IMG/VR virus record: IMGVR_UViG_3300032284_002779
Coordinates: 1 to 38,719 of that record
Strand: one strand, 5' to 3'
Origin: a virus
DNA length: 38,719 nt
Made by a program: the position numbers and the translations under genes. This document shows positions 1 to 38,719 of the stretch, one piece after another (positions within the stretch are counted from its first letter, which is position 1; each line of letters opens with the position of its first letter). Under the pieces are notes generated by a model that had not been told where the DNA came from, ran no database searches, and saw nothing but the letters and a program-made list of their open reading frames with translations.

Positions 1-647
1 GGCGAAGGCGCCGACTTGCCGCCCCAACCGGAGGCCGTCGACGTCGGCTGAAAAAAAATGGATGCCTCCCCAGTTGCGGCTCATGCCGACCTCGTCTTCG
101 GCGGAGCTGAACGTCGCAAAGCGGCGCTCGAAGGTTTCAATACGGGCGACAAACGGAATGTCGTCGCGGCCGAAAAAGCGCCTCAAGACCTCGGCGGCGG
201 CGCCCGAAAACGTGCTGTGGCCGCTGACATATTCGGGAAACGCAGGCGTGCTCAACAAGGGCTTCCACGAAGCATCCCTCCGGGCCTTCGGATGCCCCGT
301 GTCGACCGAGCGAATCGCCGTGACAGGGCGCCAGAAGTTGTAGTGAAACTTGCAATCCCAACAGGCGATTGCCGCATCGGCCATGGCGCAATTGAGAAGG
401 GCCAAAAGAGCCGTCTTTTCGGCCATGTTGAGCCCGCGCTCCGAGGATAGTTCGAGCGCGACGAGGTTCCAATGGCCGGGCGGCGTAATCGAGCCTACAA
501 AACAATTCCAAAACTGCGCGGCCGCGGTTTGGTCTGGGGTGCGCGTCCGGCTATCGGCAGAGCCGAGACTTCGGGTCTGCTCCAACTCGGCGAGGTACCG
601 AGCGCCACCCAAGGCCGGGGGGCCGGGCGGTAAAACCGCGAAATGCC
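1..647 (-). pseudogene. Vanadium-haloperoxidase/PAP2-type protein, 5' part cut off by the prophage
   Basis: An open frame on the minus strand runs from the left phage end to the window edge with no stop. All three vanadate/phosphate-site motifs of the family are visible: a K-x6-R-P motif (KFHYNFWRP, near 325-351), an SGH motif (FPEYVSGHSTFSG, near 210-250) and an S-R-x5-H motif (SRNWGGIH, near 65-90). Upstream lies the family's PPALGG...SRTRTPDQT...FW...TPPGHWN stretch. These enzymes oxidise halides with peroxide or act as acid phosphatases. The motifs alone do not decide which. The frame is broken at about 647, where it enters the phage end and meets a stop at 657-659. The missing N-terminal part is not present on the other side of the prophage. 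The 3' end lies outside the window. Confidence 0.85.
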
Positions 648-715
648 TGAAAAGGGTCACGGATAAAGCTGAAAAGGGTCGCTGCGGGTAAACTGCCGCG
701 CTGCGGCAAAAGGGT
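648..715. repeat. Left phage end with three transposase-site-like repeats
   Basis: Three direct copies of a motif lie in the outermost 70 bases: TGAAAAGGGTC at 648-658 and 670-680, and GCAAAAGGGT at 706-715. The AAAAGGGT cores start at 650, 672 and 708, so spacings are 22 and 36 bp. The same motif occurs inverted at the right end. By analogy with the MuA-binding sites of Mu-family ends, these are probably transposase binding sites. That role is inference. A TGCCGC-GCT-GCGGCA hairpin (694-708) lies between the second and third copies, just beyond the end of the late arm, and may help stop its transcripts, although only a short T run (GTTT) follows. Confidence 0.6.
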
Positions 716-751
716 GGCAGCAATCCTGCCGTGAGGCTGCCGATCGCCTGC

Positions 752-17774: not shown

Positions 17775-20090
17775 TTACGCAGTCGCGAGCAATTGCCCGC
17801 TGCTCGCCTGGCCGACGGCGACGCCGTACATCCAGGCAAGGCGCATGGTCGCCTGGGCCTTGTTGTGATCGACGTACTCCACAAGCATCAGCGAGAGGCC
17901 GGTGTCGGGGTTCGTCACGACGCTCGTCACACCGCCGCCGGTCGCGCCGGGGAAGATGCTCGCGTAATCGTTCGGCACGCGGGTCGCCAGAATCACGGCG
18001 TCGGGGGTGAACCCGAAACCCTGCGTGGTCGTCGCGATGTTCGAGTTCTGCGAGTTCGACAAGTAAGGCGCCTCGTAGATCTTGAACCCGGCCACATCGG
18101 GCAGGATGTTTTTCGTGATCAGCTCGTTCCGCGAGAACGCGGCCATGGTCACGATCGTCGGGTCGGTCGCCAGCTGCGCGAAGGCGTCGCTGTACAGGAA
18201 CATCGACCGCGGGGCCGGAGGCACGCCGCGCTTGTTCAGGTCGCGCGACATGTTGACGATCGACGGACGGCCCAGCTGGGCCAACGGCGCCACCGTCTTG
18301 TTGGCGTAGTTGCCGACAATGAACAGCGAGGTGACCGCGTTCACCAGGTCGAGCCCGATCGCGTAGTGCATCGGCTCCTGTTGTTCGCCGAAGAGCAAGC
18401 GGCGGGTGCTGGCCAGATCGTTCGCGGTGAAGGTGATCTGAACGCCCTTGTGCGTGTTGATCGTCACCGACACGTCAGTGTCGGTCGCGTTCGAGTCGCC
18501 GTAACCCGTGCCGGCCGTGAACGTATTGACCGCCGGGACCGCCCGCGTGCGGGTGGTGATCGTCTGGTTGTAGTTCGCCGCCTCGGCCGAGAAATCGGTC
18601 GTGATCGCCGTCAGCTCGGGGAAGCTGAACTTGAGCAACTGAAGCGACTTCTGGGTGACCAGCGTCCCGACCAGCGTGCCCAGGGAGTTCGCCGCCTGAA
18701 TCGGGGCGTTCTCGTGCCAGATCCGGTTGGCGGCCTGGACCACGAAGTCCATGCCGTCCTCCTTGTCCATCGCCTTGCTGATGGCACGGAACCTTTCAGC
18801 GCGGGCCCTGGCCGCCTCGATCTTCGAGCCCGGCTTCAAGTTGCCGATCTCGGCGTACGCCTGCACCGCCCGGCGCAGATCCTCGCCGGTCGCGGCCTGG
18901 ATCGGGCCCCGGTTCGCATCATGCGGCGAAATCACGGTGTTCAGGGCGCCGACGACTTGCAGGCTGTTCAATGCGGCGAGGCCGGCGTCGAGGTTCGACG
19001 CGAGGATCGCCTTCCAGCGGGTATGCGATTCGGTGTCCTGCGGGGCCAGACGGCCCGCGGTGATCGCGCCCTGCACCGCGCTGTCGATGGTGCGGGTGCG
19101 GTCGGCCTGCTGCTGGGCCTTGAGCGCATCCACTTCCTGACGCAACCGGGCCGCCTCGATGGCGTCCTGGTTGTCCGCGTTGCTGGCGCCGCCATGGCCG
19201 CTGGCGGCCTCGGCTTCGATCGCCTGGGTGAGCGTATCGATCTCGGCGCGCTTGGCCTGGATCTCCTTGTCGGTCTGCGCGAGCGCAGCCGTGTTGTCCT
19301 TGCCCGCTTCGGCGGCAAGCCCGGCGCGCTTGTCAGTCAGCCCGTTCAGGGCGGTGATCAGCGCGGCTAGTTGTTTTACTTTGTTCATTGTAGTGCTGGC
19401 CGCGCGCGCGGCCCAAATCGGTTGGATCTCCTGAAACGCCGGATCGTTGACCAGGCCGCCCATACACAAAGGCGCCCCGATCACCTTTCCGGCCTCTTGG
19501 TAAAAAGCGGGGCTGAATGCCCGAAAAGTCTTTCCCTCGATTGCCGCCCTTCCCGCCGCGGTCCACTCGACCCGCGCATAAACGCCGGGGGCCGGCTGAT
19601 CCCTCCACAGAAACGCGACCGGCCAGGCACTGGCCTCGGCGTGCTGGTGGTTGAAATCGAAATAGGGCTTCTGCTTCCCCGCCGCCATTTCCGCCCGGTC
19701 CGCCTCCATGGTCGCCGCGGTCGTGCGGTCCACGGTGACCTTGACCGTGATCGGCTTGCCGTTCTGGGTCGGGTGGATCTCGTGGGTCCCCGCCGGCATC
19801 CACATGATCTCGACCGGCACGGACCCATTGCCGGCCAGCGCCGCCGCCCGCGCATGGAAAGGGTCACCTTTGGCCGCGGCTGCCAAGATCGGGGACTGGG
19901 AGCCAAAACGGGGTTTTAACCGTCCACAGGACCGGTTACTGCCGCGCATTGCCGCCCCGCTGGACGTTTTTTGTCCGCCGCCGCTGTCTTCGGTGGGGCT
20001 AAATCGTCCTGTGGCGTTTTGGAGCATGCGCGAAAGGTGGCTTCGGCCTGGATTCGTCAAGGGGTCCAGCACCTTGCTGGTTTGTCTCAT
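17775..20090 (-). CDS. Prohead protease-scaffold-major capsid fusion
   Basis: 771 residues in one frame, starting at the ATGA overlap with gpG. Residues about 70-225 look like the Mu gpI-type protease (PYFDFNHQHAEASAWPV with a candidate His 148, and FRAFSPAFY with a candidate Ser 193). Residues 235-320 are charged coiled coil, like a scaffold. Residues about 360-771 carry the major head protein pattern of the Mu gpT type (SLGTLVGTLVTQKSLQLLKF, NTFTAGTGYGDSNA, RSMFLYSDAFAQLA, PNDYASIFPGATGGG). Mu itself has separate I, Z and T genes. An internal ATG (Met 235, at 19388) could start a scaffold-capsid product, but no clear Shine-Dalgarno sequence precedes it. Confidence 0.82.
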   Translation of the reverse strand: MRQTSKVLDPLTNPGRSHLSRMLQNATGRFSPTEDSGGGQKTSSGAAMRGSNRSCGRLKPRFGSQSPILAAAAKGDPFHARAAALAGNGSVPVEIMWMPAGTHEIHPTQNGKPITVKVTVDRTTAATMEADRAEMAAGKQKPYFDFNHQHAEASAWPVAFLWRDQPAPGVYARVEWTAAGRAAIEGKTFRAFSPAFYQEAGKVIGAPLCMGGLVNDPAFQEIQPIWAARAASTTMNKVKQLAALITALNGLTDKRAGLAAEAGKDNTAALAQTDKEIQAKRAEIDTLTQAIEAEAASGHGGASNADNQDAIEAARLRQEVDALKAQQQADRTRTIDSAVQGAITAGRLAPQDTESHTRWKAILASNLDAGLAALNSLQVVGALNTVISPHDANRGPIQAATGEDLRRAVQAYAEIGNLKPGSKIEAARARAERFRAISKAMDKEDGMDFVVQAANRIWHENAPIQAANSLGTLVGTLVTQKSLQLLKFSFPELTAITTDFSAEAANYNQTITTRTRAVPAVNTFTAGTGYGDSNATDTDVSVTINTHKGVQITFTANDLASTRRLLFGEQQEPMHYAIGLDLVNAVTSLFIVGNYANKTVAPLAQLGRPSIVNMSRDLNKRGVPPAPRSMFLYSDAFAQLATDPTIVTMAAFSRNELITKNILPDVAGFKIYEAPYLSNSQNSNIATTTQGFGFTPDAVILATRVPNDYASIFPGATGGGVTSVVTNPDTGLSLMLVEYVDHNKAQATMRLAWMYGVAVGQASSGQLLATA

Positions 20091-20713
20091 ACCGGCGCCC
20101 CTTCTGTATTCCCCGCCGCGGGTGATTGATTGGCCAGGTCTATGCGATCGATGGTCGCCTGGCCTGCGGCGACCAGCTGCGCCCCCAGCGTCTCCATGTC
20201 GGGCAACGCCGTCGGGTCCGCCTTCTGGTCGACCGACGACACCAAGAGGTACTCCGCCACCGGACGCCCATCGACGATCTGCGCCAGCACCGGGTGCCGC
20301 CCCCGCGGCTTGATCAACACCAGCGGCGCCACCTCCGCCTCAAACGTTCCCGCCGTCCGGCCGTACGCCTCCGCGGTCAACGGAATCGTCAGGGCCCGCG
20401 CCGCCTTCGCCGTGATCCGGCCGCCAAAAACCTTTTGCGCGAACCTCGGATCCGAAATCGACACCACGATCTCCGCACCCGACCCGGTCGGCGTCACCCG
20501 CGGGTTGTTCACGCTGCGCATTACCGCCGTCCAAAAATGCACCCGAGCCCCGCCGAGTCGGTTCGGCTCGTCCTGGTCTTTCTGCTGGAAATGCGCCCGC
20601 AGCCGGTTGGCAGCTTCGCGGCCGACCACCTGCGCGACGTCGGCCACCGCCTGGCTGCTCAGCCGCCCCAGCCGTTCCCGCAATCCGTGATCGTCCAGGC
20701 GGACCGTAATCAT
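20087..20713 (-). CDS. Virion morphogenesis protein (Mu gpG-like)
   Basis: 208 residues from ATG 20713, which overlaps the portal stop as ATGA. Start chosen because MITVRLDDHGLRERLGRLSSQ is the usual N-terminus of this family. The pattern NRLRAHFQQKDQDEPNRLGGARVHFW and RFAQKVFGGRI..KAARALTIPL fits phage virion-morphogenesis proteins that link head and tail. A C-terminal extension of about 60 residues (TALPDMETLGAQLVAAGQAT...) follows. The gene order portal-G-protease/capsid lacks the usual MuF gene between portal and G. That gene is at 36473-38074. Confidence 0.78.
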   Translation of the reverse strand: MITVRLDDHGLRERLGRLSSQAVADVAQVVGREAANRLRAHFQQKDQDEPNRLGGARVHFWTAVMRSVNNPRVTPTGSGAEIVVSISDPRFAQKVFGGRITAKAARALTIPLTAEAYGRTAGTFEAEVAPLVLIKPRGRHPVLAQIVDGRPVAEYLLVSSVDQKADPTALPDMETLGAQLVAAGQATIDRIDLANQSPAAGNTEGAPV

Positions 20714-22539
20714 GCGGCCCCCTTTGCCGGCAGCGGCCTTTTGGCCGCGCCGGACAACGCCCCATTGACGCACGCCGCGCCCATGTACGCCTCCAAGGCC
20801 CGCGCCACCGCCTCGGGTTTGAGCAACGGCGCCAGTTCCTCGGGCACCTTGTCCCGCTTCGCTTCCAGCAGCGCGGCAAACTGCTCATCCGACAGCGCCG
20901 GATTCTCGGCCGCGAGAATCAGCTCCTTCAGCCACGGCTTCGCGCCCTGAAGCCACTTCGCCTCGATGCCCGAAATGTCTTCAAGCATCCGATCCATCAA
21001 CCTGTCTTGGGCTGCCATGGCAAAAATCGGATGCGACCGCGCCGCCCGGATCGCCGCCGCCCGCGCGGCCGCAAGTTGCGGCTTCCCATCTTTGGGCTCC
21101 CCGGCGCCTTGACCTGGCGCGTCCGCGCCGGGTTGCCCAGGCCGGGGTCCGGCCGCCGGTCCTGAGATGGTGGGTCCGTCCCCCTGCGGCTCCGGCACCC
21201 CATGCCGCCTGTACAGCCACGACTTCGGCAAGGGGATCCCGCTGGTCAACAGCACCTGATCCCGCTGCGCCCGCACCATCGCCTCCGACTCATCCCACGT
21301 GACCCGCTCCAATCGGGGCGCCTGTTCCTCATCCCCGAAGTTGACGCGCAGAATCGACGGAATGATCTGGTCATTGACCACCGTCTCCGCGTGCTCGGCT
21401 GCCGCCTGGATGATCTCGTCGCGGACGTCCTTGTGGACCATGCCCAAGGCTTTGCTGCCGCCGCCCTTCGACCCCTGCTCGCTGGTCAACGTCTGCCCCA
21501 GCACCAGCAGGTCACAGAGCCGGTCCGCCAATTCATGGACCGCAAACTGCGGATTGTCCGCCGCGCCGCTGACCGTCTCTTTCAGTTCCAGCTGCGTCCC
21601 GGCCGGCAGCGCCGCCCAGGCCGTGGATCCCATATTCGCCAGCGCCGCCTGCAGGAGGGGCAACAGGGACGGATTCGACGCATCGTAAGTGCCCCACCGA
21701 ATCGGCTGACCGAAAATCTGGGCGAAGTTCAGCAGCCACCCCGCGCTGAAATTCGAGGCCGCCCACCAGAACGCGAGCGGACGCAGCAGCGCCGCCCCCG
21801 TCGGCAACCCCGACCGCGCCTTGCAGATCGACACCGCGAACTTGTCCGGCGGAAACGGCGTGAACGCATCCGACCGATCCGGCGACACCGCCGACGACAT
21901 ATCCGGCCCGCCCCGCCGCAGCGCGTAAGCGCCCGCCTCAAAGTCGAACCCGTAATTCATCGGGTGAATCCACCGGGCCTGCTTCAACCCCAGGTATGAC
22001 CCCGCCGCCGCGTTGGCGCGCACCTCCCAGTCCAGCTCCATCACCGAGACGCTCTTCGCCCAGGCGTCGAGCAAATCGATGATCATCTGCTGAAACCCAG
22101 CGGCGTCCGCGCCCGGATCCGGCCGCATCCCGAACAGCGCCGCCTTTACCACCGCCGCCCGTTTCACCGCCTCCGGCGTCGGCTCCGCGCCTTCCTCCGC
22201 ATACGGCTGCACCTGCCAATCACTCGCCGCCACCGCCCGCTTCAATTCCAGCAGGTTCTTGCACAGCCGCGGCCAGGTATCCTCCATCAGGTGGAACAAC
22301 TGCCACACCTGGAACGTGTCCCCGAACTGACCCAGCCGCAGGATGCTCTCGATGTACTGCGGCGTGTACCCCGACGAAATCGCGTAAACCCAATTCCCGT
22401 AAGCCGTCGGCTGAATGATCTGCTGGAGATTCGACGGCACCATCGCCGGCATCGCCGGTTGATTTCCTTTGCGACGCCGCAGCATGGCCGCCGCCGCCCC
22501 CGCCGCCTCAATGATCCGCGTGGAAAGGCCGCCCTTCAT
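20710..22539 (-). CDS. Portal protein (Mu gp29 / DUF935-like)
   Basis: 609 residues, overlapping the terminase stop by ATGA. Characteristic segments: DTFQVWQLFHLMEDTWPRL, an aromatic-rich core (SVSVMELDWEV-type), SEQGSKGGGSKALGMVHKDVRDEII, and FGDEEQAPRLERVTWDESE. A Pro/Gly-rich linker (about 480-515) is followed by a helical tail (AARSHPIFAMAAQDRLMDRMLEDISGIEAKW). DUF935 portals form the DNA gate of the head. Length is slightly above the Mu value because of the C-terminal part, which resembles the end often seen in this group. Confidence 0.88.
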   Translation of the reverse strand: MKGGLSTRIIEAAGAAAAMLRRRKGNQPAMPAMVPSNLQQIIQPTAYGNWVYAISSGYTPQYIESILRLGQFGDTFQVWQLFHLMEDTWPRLCKNLLELKRAVAASDWQVQPYAEEGAEPTPEAVKRAAVVKAALFGMRPDPGADAAGFQQMIIDLLDAWAKSVSVMELDWEVRANAAAGSYLGLKQARWIHPMNYGFDFEAGAYALRRGGPDMSSAVSPDRSDAFTPFPPDKFAVSICKARSGLPTGAALLRPLAFWWAASNFSAGWLLNFAQIFGQPIRWGTYDASNPSLLPLLQAALANMGSTAWAALPAGTQLELKETVSGAADNPQFAVHELADRLCDLLVLGQTLTSEQGSKGGGSKALGMVHKDVRDEIIQAAAEHAETVVNDQIIPSILRVNFGDEEQAPRLERVTWDESEAMVRAQRDQVLLTSGIPLPKSWLYRRHGVPEPQGDGPTISGPAAGPRPGQPGADAPGQGAGEPKDGKPQLAAARAAAIRAARSHPIFAMAAQDRLMDRMLEDISGIEAKWLQGAKPWLKELILAAENPALSDEQFAALLEAKRDKVPEELAPLLKPEAVARALEAYMGAACVNGALSGAAKRPLPAKGAA

Positions 22540-24269
22540 TGGCCGCCCCCCTTCAACATCGCCGGACGGTACACCGCCGGCCTGAACGCCGCCGTTCCCA
22601 CCGCAATCCCTTCCATGGTCGTGATCGCCCCCGCGTTGCTCGTCACCGCCTCGGCCGCCAGCTTCAGCGCATCAAACACGTCCCCGTGTTCCCCGTTCGG
22701 ACCCAGCTCCGCGTCGAAACTCCCCTTGTGCCGCTTCACCCGCCGCACGTCGTCCTTCACGTACCGGTCGGCCGGGATCGCAATCCGGTTGTCGGTGAAG
22801 AGCCCCGCCAGCTGCGCGCCCAGGATCGCCTTGCGCGTCGCCTTCTCGCCATTGGTCTGCTCGACCGTCTCGCTGCCGACCACGTCCTGGATCGGACACA
22901 GCGTGCCCAGGTCGCGCCGCACATTGACGCAGTGGTACCGTTCCGAGGTCGCGTCCTGGCACACCCGACGCGCCCGGCCGCCCCGCTGCCGCCCGTTGAC
23001 CGCCTGGATGCATTGCCGCAGCCGCCCGATCGCCACCTTGGGATCCGCGGTCTTCCACGTCAGCGTCGCCAGCGCCACCAGCTCCGCGCCGCGTTCCTCA
23101 ACGACCGCCACCGCCGTCGGGTTGCTGCTGTCCTTCTCCGTCGTCGCCCAGTCCACCCCGATCCCGATCCGGCCGTCGCCCACCCGCGTCCGGATGTGTT
23201 CCAAGGCCGCCGCCAGCTCGACATCCTCCGTCACCGAGAAATGCGCGCAGCGCAGCTCGGCGCCCTTGCGCATCGCGTGGTCCAGCTGCACCAGCCCGAC
23301 CGCCGCCGTCCCGCCCAGGACGAACTTCACCCCGTAGTTTCTGTCCCACGCATCCTTGTCGAATTCGCGGGCCCGCGATTCCTCCGGCGATTGCGGCTTG
23401 CCCGTGTCGTCGTCGTAGAGCGGGATCCCGTCGGCAAACGCATCCGCCGCGTCGACCCGCAGGATCCACACCCCGAGTTCGCTCTGATACCAGTTGCCCT
23501 TGGGATTGATCGGGAACTCCGTCCCGATCGGCGGGGCCAGCAGTTCAAACGAGAAATGCGTGTCGTCCGGCGGCGGGGTCGTCGTCAGCAAGCAGCGGAA
23601 GGCCGGGTTCGACGAAATGATGGGCTTCACCGCCTCCCACACCTCCCGGAAATTCTTCACCCGACCCACCTCGTCCAGGATCAGGTCGCCCGTCTCACCG
23701 ACCGCGTCGGGTGTCAGCGCAACCACCTTCGTCCGGCTGTACACCGTCCGGTCATGCCACAGCCGAAACTCGAGCCGCGTCGCTTCATACAACTCGGCCC
23801 AGTCATCCGCATTCACCGCGGCCACCGACTTCCCGCCTTGGGCGTCGATCACATCCATCTGCAAGCCGCCCGTCCGCGCCGCCTGCATCATCAGGCTGAC
23901 CGCCTTCTGCATCGCCGCGCTTTCCTTGCGGACGATTTCCCGCCCCAGATCCAGCTTCACCGAGCCGAACACCACCGTGTGCCCGGCCGTGCGCATCATC
24001 TTTTTCAGCGCGATGCGGCCCGCGGTCGTCGTCTTCCCGTACTGCCGACGGCACAAGAACCCCGAGATTCGGTGGACATCCACCCCGCGCTCGAACTCGC
24101 GCTGACCCGACCGCACCGCAAAAGAGGGAGTGCCGGCGGCGCCGTTGTCGGGCCCGCGAGCGGCCGGCGCGCTCGCGACTTCGGGAATGTCTCGACCCTG
24201 GCCCTTGCCGGTCACACCTCCGTCCACCACCTGCGCCTGGGCGGAAATCTTGTTGCGGGCCTTTTTCAT
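22536..24269 (-). CDS. Terminase large subunit (Mu gp28-like)
   Basis: 577 residues. ATPase: Walker-A-like FLCRRQYGKTTT (about 72-82), Walker B DLILDE (195-200) and a coupling motif LLTTTP (228-231 region). Nuclease: GIGVDWATTEKDSS (Asp 373) as first metal ligand, with GDVFDALKLA near the C-terminus as a late acidic ligand. It cuts and pumps phage DNA into the prohead. Mu-type terminases package from an end site with host DNA attached. The gene overlaps the small subunit upstream by ATGA and the portal downstream by ATGA. The N-terminal 60 residues are low-complexity and less conserved. Confidence 0.9.
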   Translation of the reverse strand: MKKARNKISAQAQVVDGGVTGKGQGRDIPEVASAPAARGPDNGAAGTPSFAVRSGQREFERGVDVHRISGFLCRRQYGKTTTAGRIALKKMMRTAGHTVVFGSVKLDLGREIVRKESAAMQKAVSLMMQAARTGGLQMDVIDAQGGKSVAAVNADDWAELYEATRLEFRLWHDRTVYSRTKVVALTPDAVGETGDLILDEVGRVKNFREVWEAVKPIISSNPAFRCLLTTTPPPDDTHFSFELLAPPIGTEFPINPKGNWYQSELGVWILRVDAADAFADGIPLYDDDTGKPQSPEESRAREFDKDAWDRNYGVKFVLGGTAAVGLVQLDHAMRKGAELRCAHFSVTEDVELAAALEHIRTRVGDGRIGIGVDWATTEKDSSNPTAVAVVEERGAELVALATLTWKTADPKVAIGRLRQCIQAVNGRQRGGRARRVCQDATSERYHCVNVRRDLGTLCPIQDVVGSETVEQTNGEKATRKAILGAQLAGLFTDNRIAIPADRYVKDDVRRVKRHKGSFDAELGPNGEHGDVFDALKLAAEAVTSNAGAITTMEGIAVGTAAFRPAVYRPAMLKGGGQ

Positions 24270-30488: not shown

Positions 30489-32471
30489 ATGATTTCGCGC
30501 GACGATGCTGATCGGATGGTGACCGGGGAGATCCCGGCTCCAGGCAATGACGACAGGGTTCAGGGTCACCTGTTGTCCGTGAGGAACGACGGCCTGCATG
30601 AAACAAAGACGGCGTCGTCGCGCGTTTCGATTTCAGATCTGGAAGAGGGAGCCCGCCGCCTGACCCTGGCGCGCCAGCTGGTCGCCCTCATCGAGAGCGG
30701 CAGCACCCAGACCGCGGCAGCCGCCCGGCTGGAACTCTGCGGCGCCGCTGCCAGCCGCCTGCTGGCCCGCTGGCGCATGGGCGGCCGGACCGCAGCCGCG
30801 TTCGCGCCCGGACACTCCACCGGACGCCCCCGCGCCCTCGCCACCGCCGCGGCGGACCGCGCCGCGCTCGCCGCGCAATACCTGGTCACCAACCGCACCG
30901 CCACCGCCGGCAGCGCGCAGGAGGCCGCCCGCATGGTCCGCCGCAAAGGCTTGGTCTCGCCCGAGCTGATCGCCGAGATCAACCGCCGCGAACAGGCCGG
31001 ACTGCCCCTGCTGCCCGAGAGCCTCGCCGCCGAAATCATCGCCGCCCCCGCCGTGGTCCAGGCGCACCGCAACCCGACCGAAGCGGCGTATCAGTACATC
31101 AACACCGTCGGGACCATGCGCTGGATCACCGACCCGGTGACCGGACACGAACGCCTCGCGCGCGCCGGTGACGTTTGGGAAGCCGACGACGGCACGATCA
31201 ACCTGGTCGTCTGCATCCCTTGGGACGCCGTGGCCGGCTGCCCCGTCAGTGAGAGGTACGGCGTCAAAATCGGCCGCTTCCAATGGCTCCCGATGATCGA
31301 CGTCGGGACCAGCTACATCCTCGGCTACAGCTACACCGCCCGCCCGAAATCGAGCTACCGCGCCGAGGACGTCCTCGCCCTGATGCGCGCCATGTTCGCC
31401 GCCCACGGCGTGCCCAGGTGCCTCCGCTACGAGCGCGGCACGTGGGAAGCCAACCGCATTCAGTCGGCGATGGACCGCCTCGGCATCGCCCGGTGGACGG
31501 CGTATTCGCCCCACCAAAAGCTGATCGAAAACCTCTTCAACACCCTGTGGACCAAACTGTCCGACCTGCCCGGCCAAGTCGGCCGGTTCCGCGGTGAAGA
31601 GGAAGAGGCGAACCGCCTTTTGGAAAGCTGCCGCACCGGCGCCCAAGACCCGCGCAAGCATTTCCCGATGCTGTCGGACGTCCTGGCCGCGTTCGACCGC
31701 GTCATCGCCGAGAAAAACGCGACCCGGATCAGCTCCGACGTCTACGGCGACTGGATCCCGAGCGAACGCTGGGCCCTCCAACGCGACGAAGGCCGGTTGC
31801 AGCCGCTGCCCGAAGACGCCGCCTGGCTCTTCGCACCCTGCGTCAGGGAATTGACCGTCCGCAACGGCAACCTCTCGACGAAGGTCGCCGTCACCGACGA
31901 CTGGTCCGTCCAATTCGACTACCAAGGCGCGTTTCTGCCCCTGATCGACGGTGCCAAGGTCTCGCTCCACTTCGACCCGTTCGGACCCGACGCCACCGGC
32001 ACTGTGGTCCTACTGCAAGACCTACGCGACTTGCGCGCCGGCCAGGTGATGGGGCAGGTGACCCAAGTCAACAAAGTCGCCGCCTACGCCCGCCGCAGCC
32101 TCGGCTGGGGCGACGACATCGACCGCGGCAAACAGACCGCCCGCGACACCAAGAACAGCCTGCACCAAACGATCAAAGCCATCCTCCCCAACGGCCGCCC
32201 CTCGATCACGACCACGACGGTCCAGGACGGCCAAGGCAACGCCGTCCGCCTCAGCACCGGCGAGAGCGTGCCGGCCGTGCCGGCTGGGAACGCGGGCGTC
32301 CCGCCCGCCCCGTGCGCCCCGGCCGTGCCGGCCCAGCGCGCCTCCAGCGTCATCCCCGACGCCTCCGACCCCCTCGCGTTGGCCACCGGCGACGAATGGT
32401 CCCGCACCCGCGCCCGGTCGGCGCGCCTGGCCGCCGCCCGCAAGTCCTTGGCCGAAGAGATTTCAGTCTAG
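30489..32471 (+). CDS. Transposase, MuA-like (DDE-type)
   Basis: 660 residues. N-terminal region (about 50-100, ARRLTLARQLVALIESGSTQTAAAARLEL) is a helix-turn-helix as in transposase end-binding domains. The rve core begins near 225: DVWEADDG (Asp 233 or 234), MIDVGTSYILGYSY, VPRCLRYERGTWEAN (Glu 315 where Asp is expected) and HQKLIENLFNTLW (Glu 347, 32 residues later). A beta-barrel region follows (about 415-520), then a Lys/Arg-containing end. It cleaves the phage ends and joins them to target DNA. Residues 595-607 are encoded by a 39-bp REP-like repeat. The start is uncertain; no Shine-Dalgarno sequence is visible. Confidence 0.88.
   Translation: MISRDDADRMVTGEIPAPGNDDRVQGHLLSVRNDGLHETKTASSRVSISDLEEGARRLTLARQLVALIESGSTQTAAAARLELCGAAASRLLARWRMGGRTAAAFAPGHSTGRPRALATAAADRAALAAQYLVTNRTATAGSAQEAARMVRRKGLVSPELIAEINRREQAGLPLLPESLAAEIIAAPAVVQAHRNPTEAAYQYINTVGTMRWITDPVTGHERLARAGDVWEADDGTINLVVCIPWDAVAGCPVSERYGVKIGRFQWLPMIDVGTSYILGYSYTARPKSSYRAEDVLALMRAMFAAHGVPRCLRYERGTWEANRIQSAMDRLGIARWTAYSPHQKLIENLFNTLWTKLSDLPGQVGRFRGEEEEANRLLESCRTGAQDPRKHFPMLSDVLAAFDRVIAEKNATRISSDVYGDWIPSERWALQRDEGRLQPLPEDAAWLFAPCVRELTVRNGNLSTKVAVTDDWSVQFDYQGAFLPLIDGAKVSLHFDPFGPDATGTVVLLQDLRDLRAGQVMGQVTQVNKVAAYARRSLGWGDDIDRGKQTARDTKNSLHQTIKAILPNGRPSITTTTVQDGQGNAVRLSTGESVPAVPAGNAGVPPAPCAPAVPAQRASSVIPDASDPLALATGDEWSRTRARSARLAAARKSLAEEISV
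32271..32309. repeat. REP-like repeat, copy 2, in frame within the transposase gene
   Basis: Identical over 39 bases to 26932-26970. It encodes exactly 13 codons, PAVPAGNAGVPPA (residues 595-607). A partial CCGGCCGTGCCGG echo follows at 32319-32331. It falls in the low-complexity tail after the catalytic and beta-barrel parts. Confidence 0.85.
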
Positions 32472-32486
32472 CCACCTCACACCACC

Positions 32487-33575
32487 ATGAACAACGCCGC
32501 CACAGCACAACAAGAACCCGACAAAGTTGTCGGGATCCGCTTCGATGACCTCACGATCCAGCGCGAGGCCGAACACCTGCCCGAAGACCTCCGCGAGGAC
32601 TTCACCTGGCTAAAATGCTTCCTCCGCGAGGAATGCAGCCGCGACCTCGACGTATTTATGTTGCGGGCTCGGAAACTCAACATCCCCCACGATCGCACGA
32701 CGTGGTCCAAAATATTCCGCGGACGCTACAACCGAGACCAAGTCGGCCGCCCGCTGCCCAATCCGATTATCAGTGTCGAGTCTTTTAGGCAGCACGTCAC
32801 GGCCCTCCGTACCAATACAAGGGCCGAACAACTCCGGGGAAAAGTCCCCTTCTGTGATACATCGGTCGCCGTTGAAATCTTCGACTACTGCGATTTGAAA
32901 CGGTCACCGGATCGCGTGAATCGCTTCGGCATTATTGTAGGAGCGACCGGCAGCGGCAAAACCGCCGCATTTAAAGAATACGTCCGCCGCAACAATCACG
33001 GCGCCACGCGCTGGGTAGAAGCCCCATTCAATGGTTCCACCATTGATTTAGTAACCTCCTTGGCCGTGTCCGGCGGCTACGGAGCACAAAACCCGTTCGA
33101 GAAAAAGCGCCGCTTCCTCGTAGATTCCCTCGATGAAAGCAAATTGCTCATCATCGATAACGCGCAGGACTTGTACAAAATCCAGGCGAACGATCAACCC
33201 GCCTTCACCTTCCTGCGCACGCTCCAAGACACCACCGGCTGCGCGATCGTGTTGTCGATCACCCCGATCTTCGAACAACGCCTCCGGGTGGAAATGATCC
33301 GCGGCTACTGGGAACAGTTCGAAGGCCGTAGCGGCGGACGGCGCAACTGGCTGCGCCTCCCCGAATACCCGCCCGATGACGACTGCGTGATGATCGCCAA
33401 AACGTTCGGCGTCGTCGACGCCGGCAAGTACCGCAAGGAGTTGGCCAGCATCGCCCGCGAGCCCGGCCGCATCCGGTACTACTTCGAAGTGCTCCAAACG
33501 GCCAAGCAACTGGCCAGCGCCGGCAAAACCGACCTGACGATCGACGTCGTCCGCGACGCCATCGGCGAGGAATAA
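32487..33575 (+). CDS. Transposition ATPase, MuB-like AAA+ protein
   Basis: 362 residues. Walker A GATGSGKT (152-159) and Walker B LLIIDNAQDL (220-229) are clear. SITPIFEQRLR is close to the sensor 1 region. Residues 30-80 form an N-terminal DNA-binding region (LREDFTWLKCFLREECSRDLDVFMLRARKLNIPHDRTTW), as in MuB and related phage ATPases. It delivers target DNA to the transposase and protects the phage from self-insertion. Immediately downstream of A. Base composition is lower in G/C than neighbours (30 of 60 in 32761-32820), which may reflect separate history. Confidence 0.88.
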   Translation: MNNAATAQQEPDKVVGIRFDDLTIQREAEHLPEDLREDFTWLKCFLREECSRDLDVFMLRARKLNIPHDRTTWSKIFRGRYNRDQVGRPLPNPIISVESFRQHVTALRTNTRAEQLRGKVPFCDTSVAVEIFDYCDLKRSPDRVNRFGIIVGATGSGKTAAFKEYVRRNNHGATRWVEAPFNGSTIDLVTSLAVSGGYGAQNPFEKKRRFLVDSLDESKLLIIDNAQDLYKIQANDQPAFTFLRTLQDTTGCAIVLSITPIFEQRLRVEMIRGYWEQFEGRSGGRRNWLRLPEYPPDDDCVMIAKTFGVVDAGKYRKELASIAREPGRIRYYFEVLQTAKQLASAGKTDLTIDVVRDAIGEE

Positions 33576-33892: not shown

Positions 33893-34438
33893 ATGATCAA
33901 CACCACCGACGCCCCCACGGGCCCCGTCACCCTCGTCGAGATCGAGCGCGCCGCGCGCGACTACGCCGACCGACGCGAACACCTCCTCGGCCACGCCCAA
34001 GTCGTGCGCGAGCACCTTGAAGCCGAACGCCGCAAAGCCGTTCCCAGCGTCACCGACCTGACCCGCCGCTGCGCCGAGGCTCAGCAACGCCTGCACAACC
34101 TCATCCTGCGCGCCGCGCACCTGTTCGAGAAGCCGCGCACCCTGATCCTGGCTGGCGTCCGCGTCGGATTCCGCGTCGTCCCCGGCAAAAGCACCGTCGC
34201 CGACGACGCCGTCGGACGCCTCCGCGCCCAGCTGGGCGCCGACGCCGAAAAATACATCCGCAAGACCGAAGAGATCGACCTTGCCGCCGCCAAACAACTG
34301 CCCGCCGCCCTCCTGGCCCGCTGCGGCATCACCGTCGCCCCGTCCACCGACGCCGTCGTCATCACCGCCGGCCCCTCGGATCTCGAGAAATACGCCGCCG
34401 CCCTCCTGAACGACCAAACCGGCAACGCCGCCTCTTAA
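33893..34438 (+). CDS. Host-nuclease inhibitor, Gam-like
   Basis: 181 residues. N-terminal amphipathic helices (TLVEIERAARDYADRREHLLGHAQVVREHLEAERRKAVP) then a helix pair, and the family's beta block with RTLILAGVRVGFRVVP, corresponding to K-T-x-x-x-x-G-x-V-x-F in Mu Gam. A C-terminal part of about 60 residues continues with IDLAAAKQLPAALLARCGI, also seen in this family. Gam dimers bind DNA ends and shield them from RecBCD-type nucleases. It lies two genes after B, as in Mu. Confidence 0.8.
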   Translation: MINTTDAPTGPVTLVEIERAARDYADRREHLLGHAQVVREHLEAERRKAVPSVTDLTRRCAEAQQRLHNLILRAAHLFEKPRTLILAGVRVGFRVVPGKSTVADDAVGRLRAQLGADAEKYIRKTEEIDLAAAKQLPAALLARCGITVAPSTDAVVITAGPSDLEKYAAALLNDQTGNAAS

Positions 34439-36472: not shown

Positions 36473-38074
36473 GTGCAATTCATCTCGCCCCAGCCCTTCA
36501 CCCAAGCCGTCGCCAAGCTGACGTCCCGCCAGATCGTGACCTCGGGCATGGACAGCGCCGCTTGGTCGCGCGTCCCGGCCGCCCTGCGTGAGACCGCTTT
36601 TTTCAGCAGCAAGATCCAAGACGCCCGCTTCCTCCAAGAGACCAAGAACCTGATCGAAGATTTCCTGACCGGCGCCCGCGAGACCATCCAACTGCCCAAC
36701 GGCAAAACCACCACCCGACTGAAAGTCGGCAGCCGCGCCGCGTTCGTCCAACAAGCCCGCGAATTCGCCATCGCCCGCGGCCTCGGCCCCGTCATCGCCG
36801 ACGACAAAGGCACGCTGAAAGACATCACCAGCGAGAAACGCCTCGCCCTGATCTTCAAAATCCAGACCGAATCGGCGAACGCCTACGGCGACTGGCAGCA
36901 AGGCATGTCGCCCGCCGTCCTCAACGCCTACCCCGCTTGGGAATTCTACCGCGCCGAAGAGGTCAAGGAACCCCGTTACCTCCATAAGCTCAACGAAGGC
37001 CGCATCGAGCTAAAAACCAACCTCGGATTCTGGGGCGCGATGAACAGCCCGAACATCGGCGGATTCAACGTCCCTTGGGGCCCCTGGGGCTTCGGCTCCG
37101 GAATGTGGACCCGCGACGTCGACCGCGCTCGCGCCGAACAGCTCAACCTGCTGACCCCTTCCACCGTCCTAAAGCCCGCCCACGAAGACCTCGCCGCCCA
37201 CCAAGCCGCCGGCATCGCCACCCTCGATCCCGAGACCCGCGCCTGGCTGAAATCCCAACTCGGCGACCAAGTCGAATTCGACGGCGACACCGCCCGCTGG
37301 CGCTCGCCCCAGGTGCTGCCGCCGAACCCCGGCCGCGCCCCGGCCGTTGTCCCGCCGCCGCCCAGCCCCGAGCCTGCACCGACCCGGCGGACCGACTACA
37401 AAGCCGTCCTGGACAACCTGGCAACCCTCCGGCAAGACCCGGCCGCAGATCTGGACGCCCTCCACGAAGCCGCCCTGAAGGCGATTGAGGTTCCCGAAGC
37501 CCAGCGCGCCGCGCTGCCGCTCAAAATGGAGACCTCGGATCCCGCCGTCCAATCGGTGGCAAAGGTTGCCGCCCGCACCCTTCAGCGCCTCGTGCGCCCC
37601 GACCTGGTCGGCAACCTCCAGATGCGCGTCCGCTCATTGCGTGGCGACGACCGCGCCTTCTATAGCGACAGCGAGCGCACGATCAATCTTTCCCCCAACG
37701 GCCCCCTTTCCACGGCTTGCCATGAGATGATCCATGGCGTCGAAATGCAAAACGGACTGTTCGCCAAAGCCGCCGCGTTCCTGGTCGCGCGCGGACGTGG
37801 CGAACGCCCGCAAAAGCTCAGCAAGCTGACGAGGATCAATCGCTATCGCCCCAACGAAATTGCCTTCCAGGACAAATGGGAAGAAAAGGGTGGGCGCGTC
37901 TACTCCGGAAAACTCTACAGCACCGACCCATCCCGGCCCGACGACCCGAGCCACGTTTTCGCCACCGAGATCCTGACCATGGGCTTCGAGCGCTTGATCG
38001 AGGACGCCGTTAAATTCTGGACCACCGATCCCGAATACTGCTCGTTTGTAATCGAGACCCTTTGCCTCCTATGA
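36473..38074 (+). CDS. MuF-like head protein fused to zinc-metallopeptidase-like domain
   Basis: 533 residues from GTG 36473, two bases after the preceding stop. Residues 10-230 fit the MuF (phage minor head) family: EKRLALIFKIQTESANAYGDW, AWEFYRAEEVKEPRYLH, and FWGAMNSPNIGGFNVPWGPWGFGSGM. A Pro-rich linker (281-304) follows. Residues about 345-533 carry an HExxH zinc site (HEMIH, 417-421) with a candidate third ligand Glu 499 in ATEILTMG and a C-terminal helix. Mu gpF enters the virion, so the peptidase could be packaged and delivered. It is the second-last gene of the early arm, far from the head genes. Protease targets are unknown. Confidence 0.75.
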   Translation: MQFISPQPFTQAVAKLTSRQIVTSGMDSAAWSRVPAALRETAFFSSKIQDARFLQETKNLIEDFLTGARETIQLPNGKTTTRLKVGSRAAFVQQAREFAIARGLGPVIADDKGTLKDITSEKRLALIFKIQTESANAYGDWQQGMSPAVLNAYPAWEFYRAEEVKEPRYLHKLNEGRIELKTNLGFWGAMNSPNIGGFNVPWGPWGFGSGMWTRDVDRARAEQLNLLTPSTVLKPAHEDLAAHQAAGIATLDPETRAWLKSQLGDQVEFDGDTARWRSPQVLPPNPGRAPAVVPPPPSPEPAPTRRTDYKAVLDNLATLRQDPAADLDALHEAALKAIEVPEAQRAALPLKMETSDPAVQSVAKVAARTLQRLVRPDLVGNLQMRVRSLRGDDRAFYSDSERTINLSPNGPLSTACHEMIHGVEMQNGLFAKAAAFLVARGRGERPQKLSKLTRINRYRPNEIAFQDKWEEKGGRVYSGKLYSTDPSRPDDPSHVFATEILTMGFERLIEDAVKFWTTDPEYCSFVIETLCLL

Positions 38075-38331
38075 ACCTCGGAACCCTCATCGCCGAAATC
38101 GACGGATCCCAATTCCTCTTCGACGGGAATCACTGGACCGGCCCCGACGCCCAGCTGGTCGCCCGCCTGGACGCCTGGACAAAACGGACGCCCAAAACCC
38201 ACGGCACCATCCGCGAGATCGGCCAGGAAGTGCTGTGGGAACTCAACCGCTTTGGTCGCCGGTGGGAGATCCTTTCCGTCGACGTACCGGAAAAGATCCC
38301 TGCCGAGCTGCCTCCGGGCGACATCGACTGA
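38071..38331 (+). CDS. Small protein coupled to the MuF-zincin gene
   Basis: 86 residues from ATG 38071 (overlapping the stop of the fusion gene as ATGA). Acidic overall, with a beta-like start (LIAEIDGSQFLFDGNHWTGPDAQ) and a closing segment (EILSVDVPEKIPAELPPGD). No signal or membrane segment. No family recognised. The tight coupling to a metallopeptidase-like gene makes it a candidate partner or inhibitor. It is the last gene before the right end. Confidence 0.6.
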   Translation: MNLGTLIAEIDGSQFLFDGNHWTGPDAQLVARLDAWTKRTPKTHGTIREIGQEVLWELNRFGRRWEILSVDVPEKIPAELPPGDID

Positions 38332-38491
38332 CTATGAGCCGACCCTTTTCCAACAAGGTCGGAACCCGTTGCGTCCGAACCTTTTCAATCATTTGCGGCC
38401 AGGCCGCCTCGGCCATTTTGGACGTCACATGTCCAAACCCCACGCAAACGGTTGATCCTCAGCATCTTTCAGCCTAGTTCAGGCTGTTTCA
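38332..38491. repeat. Right phage end with inverted transposase-site-like motifs
   Basis: Reverse-complement copies of the left motif: GACCCTTTTC at 38341-38350 and GAACCTTTTCA at 38377-38387; weaker versions are GCATCTTTCAG (38462-38472) and GGCTGTTTCA (38482-38491). They weaken toward the boundary. Reading inward from 38491, TGAAA is followed 13 bases later by GCTGAAA; at the left end TGAAA is followed 15 bases later by GCTGAAA. This supports a TG...CA boundary near 38491. The gap between inner and outer sites is longer than at the left, as in the unequal ends of Mu. Confidence 0.5.
38402..38419 (+). terminator. Possible terminator of the early arm
   Basis: GGCCG-CCT-CGGCC followed by ATTTT, 70 bases after the last early gene. 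Short stem and short T run, so weak. It lies between the inner and outer right-end sites. Confidence 0.3.
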
Positions 38492-38719
38492 ACCATTCCC
38501 CGTTCCGTTCGGCCCGTTCTTGGCCCGAGCTCCGGCGTTTGCTGGCGGACGAGCCGTTCGATATCATTCACGGACATTCGAGAGGAGCCTTGCCGCTGAT
38601 CTTGGGGCTCGCGGCGACGGGATCGACCCGGTTGGTGTACACCAACCACACCTACGCAAACCATACGGCCATGTATCGTCTTGCGGCCGGCGTGCGGCGC
38701 GTAAGATGGGTGTTCCTCA
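38492..38719 (+). pseudogene. Family-4-type glycosyltransferase, 5' part cut off by the prophage
   Basis: A plus-strand frame is open from the right phage end to the window edge. It reads PELRRLLADEPFDIIHGHSRG, then ALPLILGLAATGSTRLVYTN, then HTYANHTAMYRLAAGVRRVR: the N-terminal Rossmann domain of GT-B glycosyltransferases (D-I-I-H-x-H motif, then L-V-Y-T-x-H). The first 50 or so residues that should precede it are missing and are not found on the left side of the prophage, where an unrelated haloperoxidase-type gene lies in the other orientation. The 3' part is outside the window. No stop or new start is seen at the junction. Confidence 0.7.

What the first reader, a model, noticed from the sequence alone, without database searches (positions are those of the whole stretch)
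36473..38331. MuF-zincin fusion with a coupled small gene at the end of the early arm
A MuF-type minor head domain (about 10-230) is joined by a Pro-rich linker to a domain with HEMIH (417-421) and a candidate third zinc ligand in ATEILTMG. MuF domains in phages and prophages are known carriers of effector domains that travel in the virion (polyvalent proteins, MuF toxins). The gene is not with the other head genes: the usual MuF slot between portal and gpG is empty, and the fusion is the penultimate early gene. An 86-residue protein overlaps its stop codon. Together they could be a virion-delivered protease and an inhibitor or partner, or a relocated maturation protease.
Basis: partly seen in the sequence, partly recalled or inferred. 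Interest (0 to 1): 0.8.

Follow-up and report, generated by a model that had tools for sequence, protein, structure and literature searches.

The report
Phage head protease with coupled partner gene
A bacterial virus carries a capsid-type protein fused to a predicted zinc-dependent protease, followed by a tightly coupled small gene that probably restrains it; similar pairs recur in dozens of unrelated phages, so this looks like a widespread injected effector rather than an oddity of this genome.

Summary
The ORF at 36473-38074 joins a divergent MuF-type minor-head domain, through a Pro-rich linker, to a C-terminal zincin with H417, E418, H421 and E499. All four residues are invariant in a 21-member phage alignment, and the domain folds confidently (pLDDT 90.7). 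No Pfam or NCBIfam model covers this zincin. More than 70 phage contigs carry it, and so does the virion head protein DdrB of phage P1.

The 86-residue gene is not incidental. 58 of 67 zincin genes are followed at -40..+45 nt by a 60-160 aa ORF, against 35 of 174 other large genes in the same loci. P0002 is recovered by a profile built without it (E 3e-5).

The same MuF carrier also occurs with no payload, another zincin type, or other payloads. In Akkermansia phages, payload and partner are exchanged as one cassette.

A Mu-like prohead protease is present, so "relocated maturation protease" fails. In the relative L146 the pair lies between early genes and terminase; in the window the late block is inverted and the pair stayed with the early genes.

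Best reading: a virion-packaged, injected effector protease with an inhibitor/immunity-type partner, a new variant of the MuF-toxin/polyvalent kind. Proteolysis, packaging and inhibition are inferred.

The parts
36473..38074 (+). MuF-zincin fusion gene, 533 aa, GTG start
   Evidence: full-length homologues L105, L097, L101, L102, G107 (L121/L130), G136 (L122/L128):
36473..37186 (+). MuF-type minor-head carrier domain (residues 1-238)
   Evidence: PHROG 220 in 11 of 13 family members; alignment A7
37310..37393 (+). Pro-rich linker (about residues 280-307)
   Evidence: several relatives also have Pro-rich linkers
37508..38071 (+). C-terminal zincin domain (residues 346-533)
   Evidence: A4 alignment, AlphaFold2 pLDDT 90.7, pTM 0.87, zincins lead the solved-structure matches
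37721..37735 (+). HEMIH: zinc ligands H417, H421 and catalytic E418
   Evidence: invariant in A4 and A6
37967..37969 (+). E499, third zinc ligand candidate
   Evidence: invariant in A4
38071..38331 (+). coupled partner gene, 86 aa, ATGA overlap with the zincin stop
   Evidence: profile built without it finds it at 20.1 bits, E 3.3e-5; best shuffle 5.2 bits; model pLDDT 87
30489..32471 (+). context: MuA-type transposase
32487..33575 (+). context: MuB-type transposition protein
33893..34438 (+). context: Mu Gam-like end protection
17775..20090 (-). context: Mu-like I prohead protease fused to the major head protein; argues against a maturation role for the zincin
   Evidence: PF10123 80.6 bits; PHROG 328 + 283
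20710..22539 (-). context: portal protein
22536..24269 (-). context: terminase large subunit
38340..38350 (-). terminal repeat CGACCCTTTTC, inverted copies at 649-658 and 671-681; probable transposase binding sites at the right end

Best explanation
The gene encodes a capsid-carried effector. The MuF-type domain places the protein in the head near the portal. The zincin, a HExxH+E zinc metallopeptidase with an ALF/PPEP-like fold, travels in the virion and enters the host with the DNA, where it cleaves host or phage proteins, and may first cut itself free at the Pro-rich linker. The gene directly downstream is translationally coupled and encodes a cognate partner: a small b-b-a-a-b domain with a flexible tail that in most relatives ends in P...(V/I)Y. 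It most likely binds and restrains the protease in the producing or lysogenic cell (inhibitor/immunity type). Shown here: domain make-up, conserved zinc site, gene pairing, payload exchange and a separate prohead protease. Inferred: packaging, injection, proteolysis and inhibition.
For: (1) Zinc site H417, E418, H421, E499 invariant in A4, with R440, E462, Y477, G479 and D519; confident model; the strongest solved-structure matches are zincins (PPEP-2 Z 9.4, anthrax lethal factor about Z 8). (2) The zincin sits on the same ORF as a Pfam MuF domain in at least 15 relatives. (3) P1 DdrB has the same zincin (53 bits, E 1e-17); it is a head protein with 39 peptides in virions (PMC9024508), and Dar proteins are ejected with the DNA (PMC12810830). 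(4) Coupled ORF in 58/67 zincin genes against 35/174 control genes; the partner family recovers P0002 blind; in L091 the partner is inverted yet still adjacent. (5) Same MuF carrier without payload, with this zincin, with another zincin, or with other payloads; coupled ORF in 24/31 extended against 7/19 short carriers (p 0.005). (6) Akkermansia phages L010 and L014: 92% DNA identity up to residue 324, then payload and partner differ, and identity resumes in the last bases of the partner gene. (7) A separate prohead protease exists.
Against: No virion proteomics exists for this phage; the pippi8-1 and PaV-LD 'structural' labels are annotations, not measured here. Pippi8-1 is described as strictly lytic (PMC7077304), so lysogen immunity cannot be the partner's only role. 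The gene is contiguous with early genes, which is unusual for a virion protein. Several zincins have partners not recognised by the partner profile, so one inhibitor family is not universal. No protease activity or target was tested.
Confidence: 0.6

Rival explanations
1. Self-processing polyvalent protein: the zincin's main job is to cut its own polypeptide or other head-internal proteins during assembly, and the small protein times that cut. There is no host target.
For: Iyer et al. report that P1 DdrB is processed before packaging and propose autoproteolysis by its MPTase (PMC5512222). The nearest solved folds include Pro-Pro endopeptidases and the linker is Pro-rich.
Against: Many relatives are only carrier plus zincin at the C-terminus, so self-cleavage would release only the protease itself. 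Payload exchange with other domains fits effectors better.
Confidence: 0.2
2. The small gene is an assembly or packaging chaperone, or a minor structural protein, not an inhibitor. The pair is a head component whose protease is incidental.
For: Pair present in a phage described as lytic, and in many relatives placed among head genes. The conserved C-terminal tail could be a docking signal.
Against: Short carriers without payload have the coupled ORF less often (7/19 against 24/31). The partner changes with the payload.
Confidence: 0.13
3. Relocated prohead maturation protease.
For: It is a predicted protease fused to a head-type protein.
Against: A Mu-like I prohead protease is present in the window, L015 and G136; pippi8-1 has a ClpP-type one, P1 has Pro (PMC9024508). 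The same MuF carrier occurs without any zincin.
Confidence: 0.03
4. Catalytically dead zincin kept as a scaffold or binding module.
For: No activity has been shown here for any member.
Against: All ligands and the catalytic Glu are invariant across relatives 23-38% identical to the window domain.
Confidence: 0.04

Closest known systems
MuF toxins (Jamet et al. 2017, PMC5576092)
   Same: MuF N-domain, exchangeable C-terminal enzyme, small downstream ORF (89.4% there). 20% of those toxins have a metallopeptidase domain.
   Different: MuF domain too divergent for PF04233; gene not next to the portal or terminase in this window; zincin family not in Pfam; also found in a phage described as lytic and on non-MuF proteins; one recognisable partner family recurs.
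Polyvalent proteins with zincin-like MPTase; prototype P1 DdrB (Iyer et al. 2017, PMC5512222)
   Same: Homologous zincin, virion-linked multidomain proteins, HExxH plus Glu in the next helix.
   Different: Only two domains here, and a MuF carrier instead of DdrB-ParB. I found no mention of a conserved coupled partner gene in the passages of that paper that I read.
ALF/PPEP-type gluzincins (anthrax lethal factor, Pro-Pro endopeptidases)
   Same: Best solved-structure matches (Z 9.4 and about 8), HExxH...E zinc site, conserved Tyr shortly before the Glu.
   Different: About 8-16% identity, longer stretch between HExxH and Glu (82 residues from H417 to E499), no sequence link by HMM.
Akkermansia phages Chantilly/Chambord 'head morphogenesis'
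   Same: 35% identical carrier domain; gene just before the terminase.
   Different: Another zincin type (HEIGHYVD) at the C-terminus and only a 37-42 codon ORF after it.

Membership tests
MuF toxins | N-terminal MuF domain | tested here: met
   PHROG 220 in 11/13 family members, best 7.3e-9; but PF04233 itself is below cut-off and a profile comparison with classic MuF domains was weak
MuF toxins | variable C-terminal enzymatic domain on a conserved carrier | tested here: met
   carrier with no payload, this zincin, another zincin, or other payloads; cassette exchange
MuF toxins | small ORF (<150 aa) directly downstream | tested here: met
MuF toxins | gene beside portal/terminase in the packaging module (described as frequent, not universal) | tested here: not met
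   in the window it lies on the early arm about 12 kb from the terminase; terminase lies close by in relatives L146, L149 and Chambord
MuF toxins | temperate phage | tested here: met
   MuA, MuB and repressor in the window; copies in bacterial genomes G136, G107
MuF toxins | toxicity and immunity shown | not testable with these tools
   needs expression assays
Polyvalent-protein MPTase (P1 DdrB type) | homologous zincin domain | tested here: met
   DdrB 53 bits, E 1e-17 to the A4 profile; tblastn E 3e-5 from member L030
Polyvalent-protein MPTase (P1 DdrB type) | packaged in the virion | not testable with these tools
   known for DdrB (PMC9024508), not for this protein
Gluzincin (HExxH...E) | HExxH helix and downstream Glu at the next conserved helix | tested here: met
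   model helix 67-81 holds HEMIH; E154 (E499) directly precedes helix 155-173; residues invariant.
Gluzincin (HExxH...E) | membership of the ALF/PPEP (M34-like) group specifically | tested here: inconclusive
   Z 9.4 and about 8 with zincins on top, but Foldseek E above 0.01 and 8-16% identity
Prohead maturation protease | serves as the protease of the head module (no other one present) | tested here: not met
   Mu-like_Pro present

The most novel reading that the evidence does not exclude
A dedicated protease-inhibitor pair is used by many unrelated phages: the coupled small protein plugs the zincin cleft with its conserved Pro-containing, (V/I)Y-ending tail until the virion is made, and P1 DdrB/Hxr belongs to this system, which would give functions to two poorly explained P1 genes.
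Probability: 0.3. Interest if true: 0.75.

Novelty: new variant of a known kind. Interest (0 to 1): 0.56.

Why it matters
It links a widespread phage zincin without a Pfam or NCBIfam model (found on MuF proteins, on P1 DdrB and on cyanophage proteins) to a recurrent coupled partner. Payload swapping on one MuF carrier makes 'do MuF proteins deliver effectors?' directly testable. P1 offers a ready laboratory model: delete hxr, mutate the DdrB zincin, and read virion content and host effects.

Tried and rejected
Direct searches with P0001 alone found no relative in viral or genome contigs; alignments were needed. NCBIfam and Pfam have no model for this zincin beyond weak hits. Profile comparison of the carrier with classic MuF domains was not significant, so the MuF label rests on PHROG 220 and context. 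Sequence search of solved structures gave only weak hits (none credible for the carrier). The partner's fold has no convincing solved match (best Z 5.4), which does not show a new fold. Hxr of P1 is not recovered by the partner profile (1.4 bits), so its link rests on position, acidic tail and the C-terminal IVY only. The prohead-protease reading was rejected. The viral-library fold search mainly returned viral proteins without informative names.

Full report
OBSERVATION. The 533-aa ORF at 36473-38074 and the 86-aa gene at 38071-38331 are as described. The pair ends the + strand arm that holds MuA, MuB and Gam. Short inverted repeats that look like transposase ends (CGACCCTTTTC at 38340; inverted copies at 649 and 671) begin nine bases after the partner's stop. 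No other MuF gene was found.

CARRIER DOMAIN. Pfam is silent on the N-terminal 238 residues. PHROG 220 (minor head protein and DNA pilot) matches 11 of 13 family members. The nearest annotated relatives are 'head morphogenesis' proteins of Akkermansia phages Chantilly and Chambord (35% identity). A comparison with classic MuF profiles was weak, so I call this a divergent MuF-type domain.

ZINCIN DOMAIN. An alignment of 21 phage domains (relatives 23-38% identical to the window) keeps H417, E418, H421, R440, E462, Y477, G479, E499 and D519 invariant. AlphaFold2 gives pLDDT 90.7 and pTM 0.87. The leading solved-structure matches are zincins: Pro-Pro endopeptidase PPEP-2 at Z 9.4 (136 residues, 2.9 A) and anthrax lethal factor at about Z 8. 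Foldseek alone gave no match below E 0.01, so the exact group is open. The conserved Tyr of GKxY sits shortly before the third ligand in short members, as the catalytic Tyr does in lethal factor and PPEP-1 (from memory).

DISTRIBUTION. Two profile scans of viral contigs gave 32 and 75 loci, partly the same contigs. HExxH is present in all members whose domain is complete. At least 15 carry a Pfam MuF domain on the same ORF; others carry an ADP-ribosyltransferase (L039), a 2'-5' RNA ligase-like domain (L032), HTH domains (L055) or a portal domain (L066). Annotated phages with it include PaV-LD, pippi8-1, Lactococcus 62503 and GBK1. P1 DdrB matches the profile at 53 bits, E 1e-17. DdrB is a measured head protein, 39 peptides and 59.5% coverage (PMC9024508); [quoted passage not shown]

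THE PARTNER. 43 of 46 newly found contigs have a 60-160 aa ORF at the zincin stop, most often with ATGA overlap. Counted over 67 zincin genes it is 58, against 35 of 174 other large genes in the same loci (loci are related, so the p value of 1e-21 overstates independence). A profile from the other partners, P0002 left out, finds P0002 at 20.1 bits (E 3.3e-5); the best of 500 shuffles scores 5.2. In 1.17 Mb of fetched sequence every partner-profile hit lies beside a zincin domain; three that the script flagged as alone prove adjacent too, one of them (L091) inverted. This test covers flanks only, and the profile was built from adjacent ORFs. P0002 is predicted as a compact b-b-a-a-b domain plus a loose tail. 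Across 60 partners, 38 end in Tyr/Phe, 52 have an aliphatic residue before it and 57 have a Pro in the tail; P0002 itself ends IPAELPPGDID, without the Tyr. In 14 loci compared, partners are less alike than zincins (mean identity 19.5% against 31%). Some zincins have partners not recognised by the profile: Verrucomicrobiota prophages, Akkermansia L008/L010, P1 Hxr.

PAYLOAD EXCHANGE. A scan with the carrier found 246 relatives, of which the best 80 were kept. Of the complete ones listed, 29 have no long extension, 10 have this zincin, 11 another HExxH domain and 24 other extensions. Close relatives of the window with Mu-like early genes carry different payloads: L146 and L149 this zincin superfamily, L148 and L150 another zincin, L147 a HipA/ART-like payload as judged by eye. 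Extended carriers have a coupled ORF more often than short ones (24/31 against 7/19; p 0.005). In Akkermansia phages L010 and L014 the DNA is 92% identical up to residue 324; payload and partner then differ; identity resumes within the last bases of the partner gene. The alternative zincin there is followed only by a 37-42 codon ORF.

WHY ON THE EARLY ARM. In L146, MuA, MuB, the MuF-zincin, an 80-aa ORF, terminase and portal all lie in that order on one strand. In the window the terminase-to-tail block is on the opposite strand and the pair stays next to the early genes. Two prophages in Verrucomicrobiota genomes have the window's layout: head genes on one strand; MuA, MuB, MuF-zincin and an overlapping 98-99 aa gene on the other. 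That an inversion of the late block produced this is my inference.

MECHANISM. Most likely the carrier puts the protease in the head, it enters the host with DNA, and the coupled protein restrains it in the producing cell. Shown: anatomy, conservation, pairing, exchange. Inferred: packaging, delivery, proteolysis, inhibition. Against a pure lysogen-immunity role: pippi8-1 is described as lytic (PMC7077304).

KNOWN KIND. MuF toxins with downstream small ORFs, 20% with metallopeptidase domains, were described by Jamet et al. (PMC5576092); zincin MPTases in polyvalent proteins by Iyer et al. (PMC5512222). This case works like them and meets most of their features; the gene's place outside the packaging module is the exception. 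What appears new is a recurrent partner family for the DdrB-type zincin, the observed cassette exchange, and the setting in transposable phages of Verrucomicrobiota. I could not read supplementary tables, so overlap with Jamet's metallopeptidase set is unknown.

Noticed in passing
17775-20090 (-): Mu-like I prohead protease and major head protein are fused in one 771-aa ORF; in the related prophage G136 they are two genes.
   Followed up: partly
1-723 (-) and 38452-38719 (+): The two ends of the contig carry parts of different host-type genes: a vanadium haloperoxidase/PAP2 protein on the left and a family 4 glycosyltransferase on the right. They may be the two sides of an insertion site or packaged host DNA.
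   Followed up: partly
649-681 and 38340-38350: Short inverted copies of GAAAAGGGTCG near both ends, probable transposase binding sites.
   Followed up: partly
L136:4455-4763 (P1 hxr): P1 hxr, annotated 'possible repressor', overlaps the end of ddrB, has an acidic tail and ends IVY like many zincin partners, though the partner profile does not recognise it.
   Followed up: partly
L091:4459-4713 (-): Zincin partner gene inverted relative to the zincin gene but still directly adjacent.
   Followed up: no
L039:4120-6534: One protein with MuF, ADP-ribosyltransferase and zincin domains.
   Followed up: no
L147:10001-12724: Close relative of the window's carrier (48% over 326 aa) with a different 668-aa C-terminus resembling a HipA-like kinase plus a possible ADP-ribosyltransferase, and its own 115-codon overlapping ORF.
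   Followed up: no
L128:18298-19017: N6/N4 DNA methylase gene downstream of the MuF-zincin pair on the early arm of prophage G136.
   Followed up: partly
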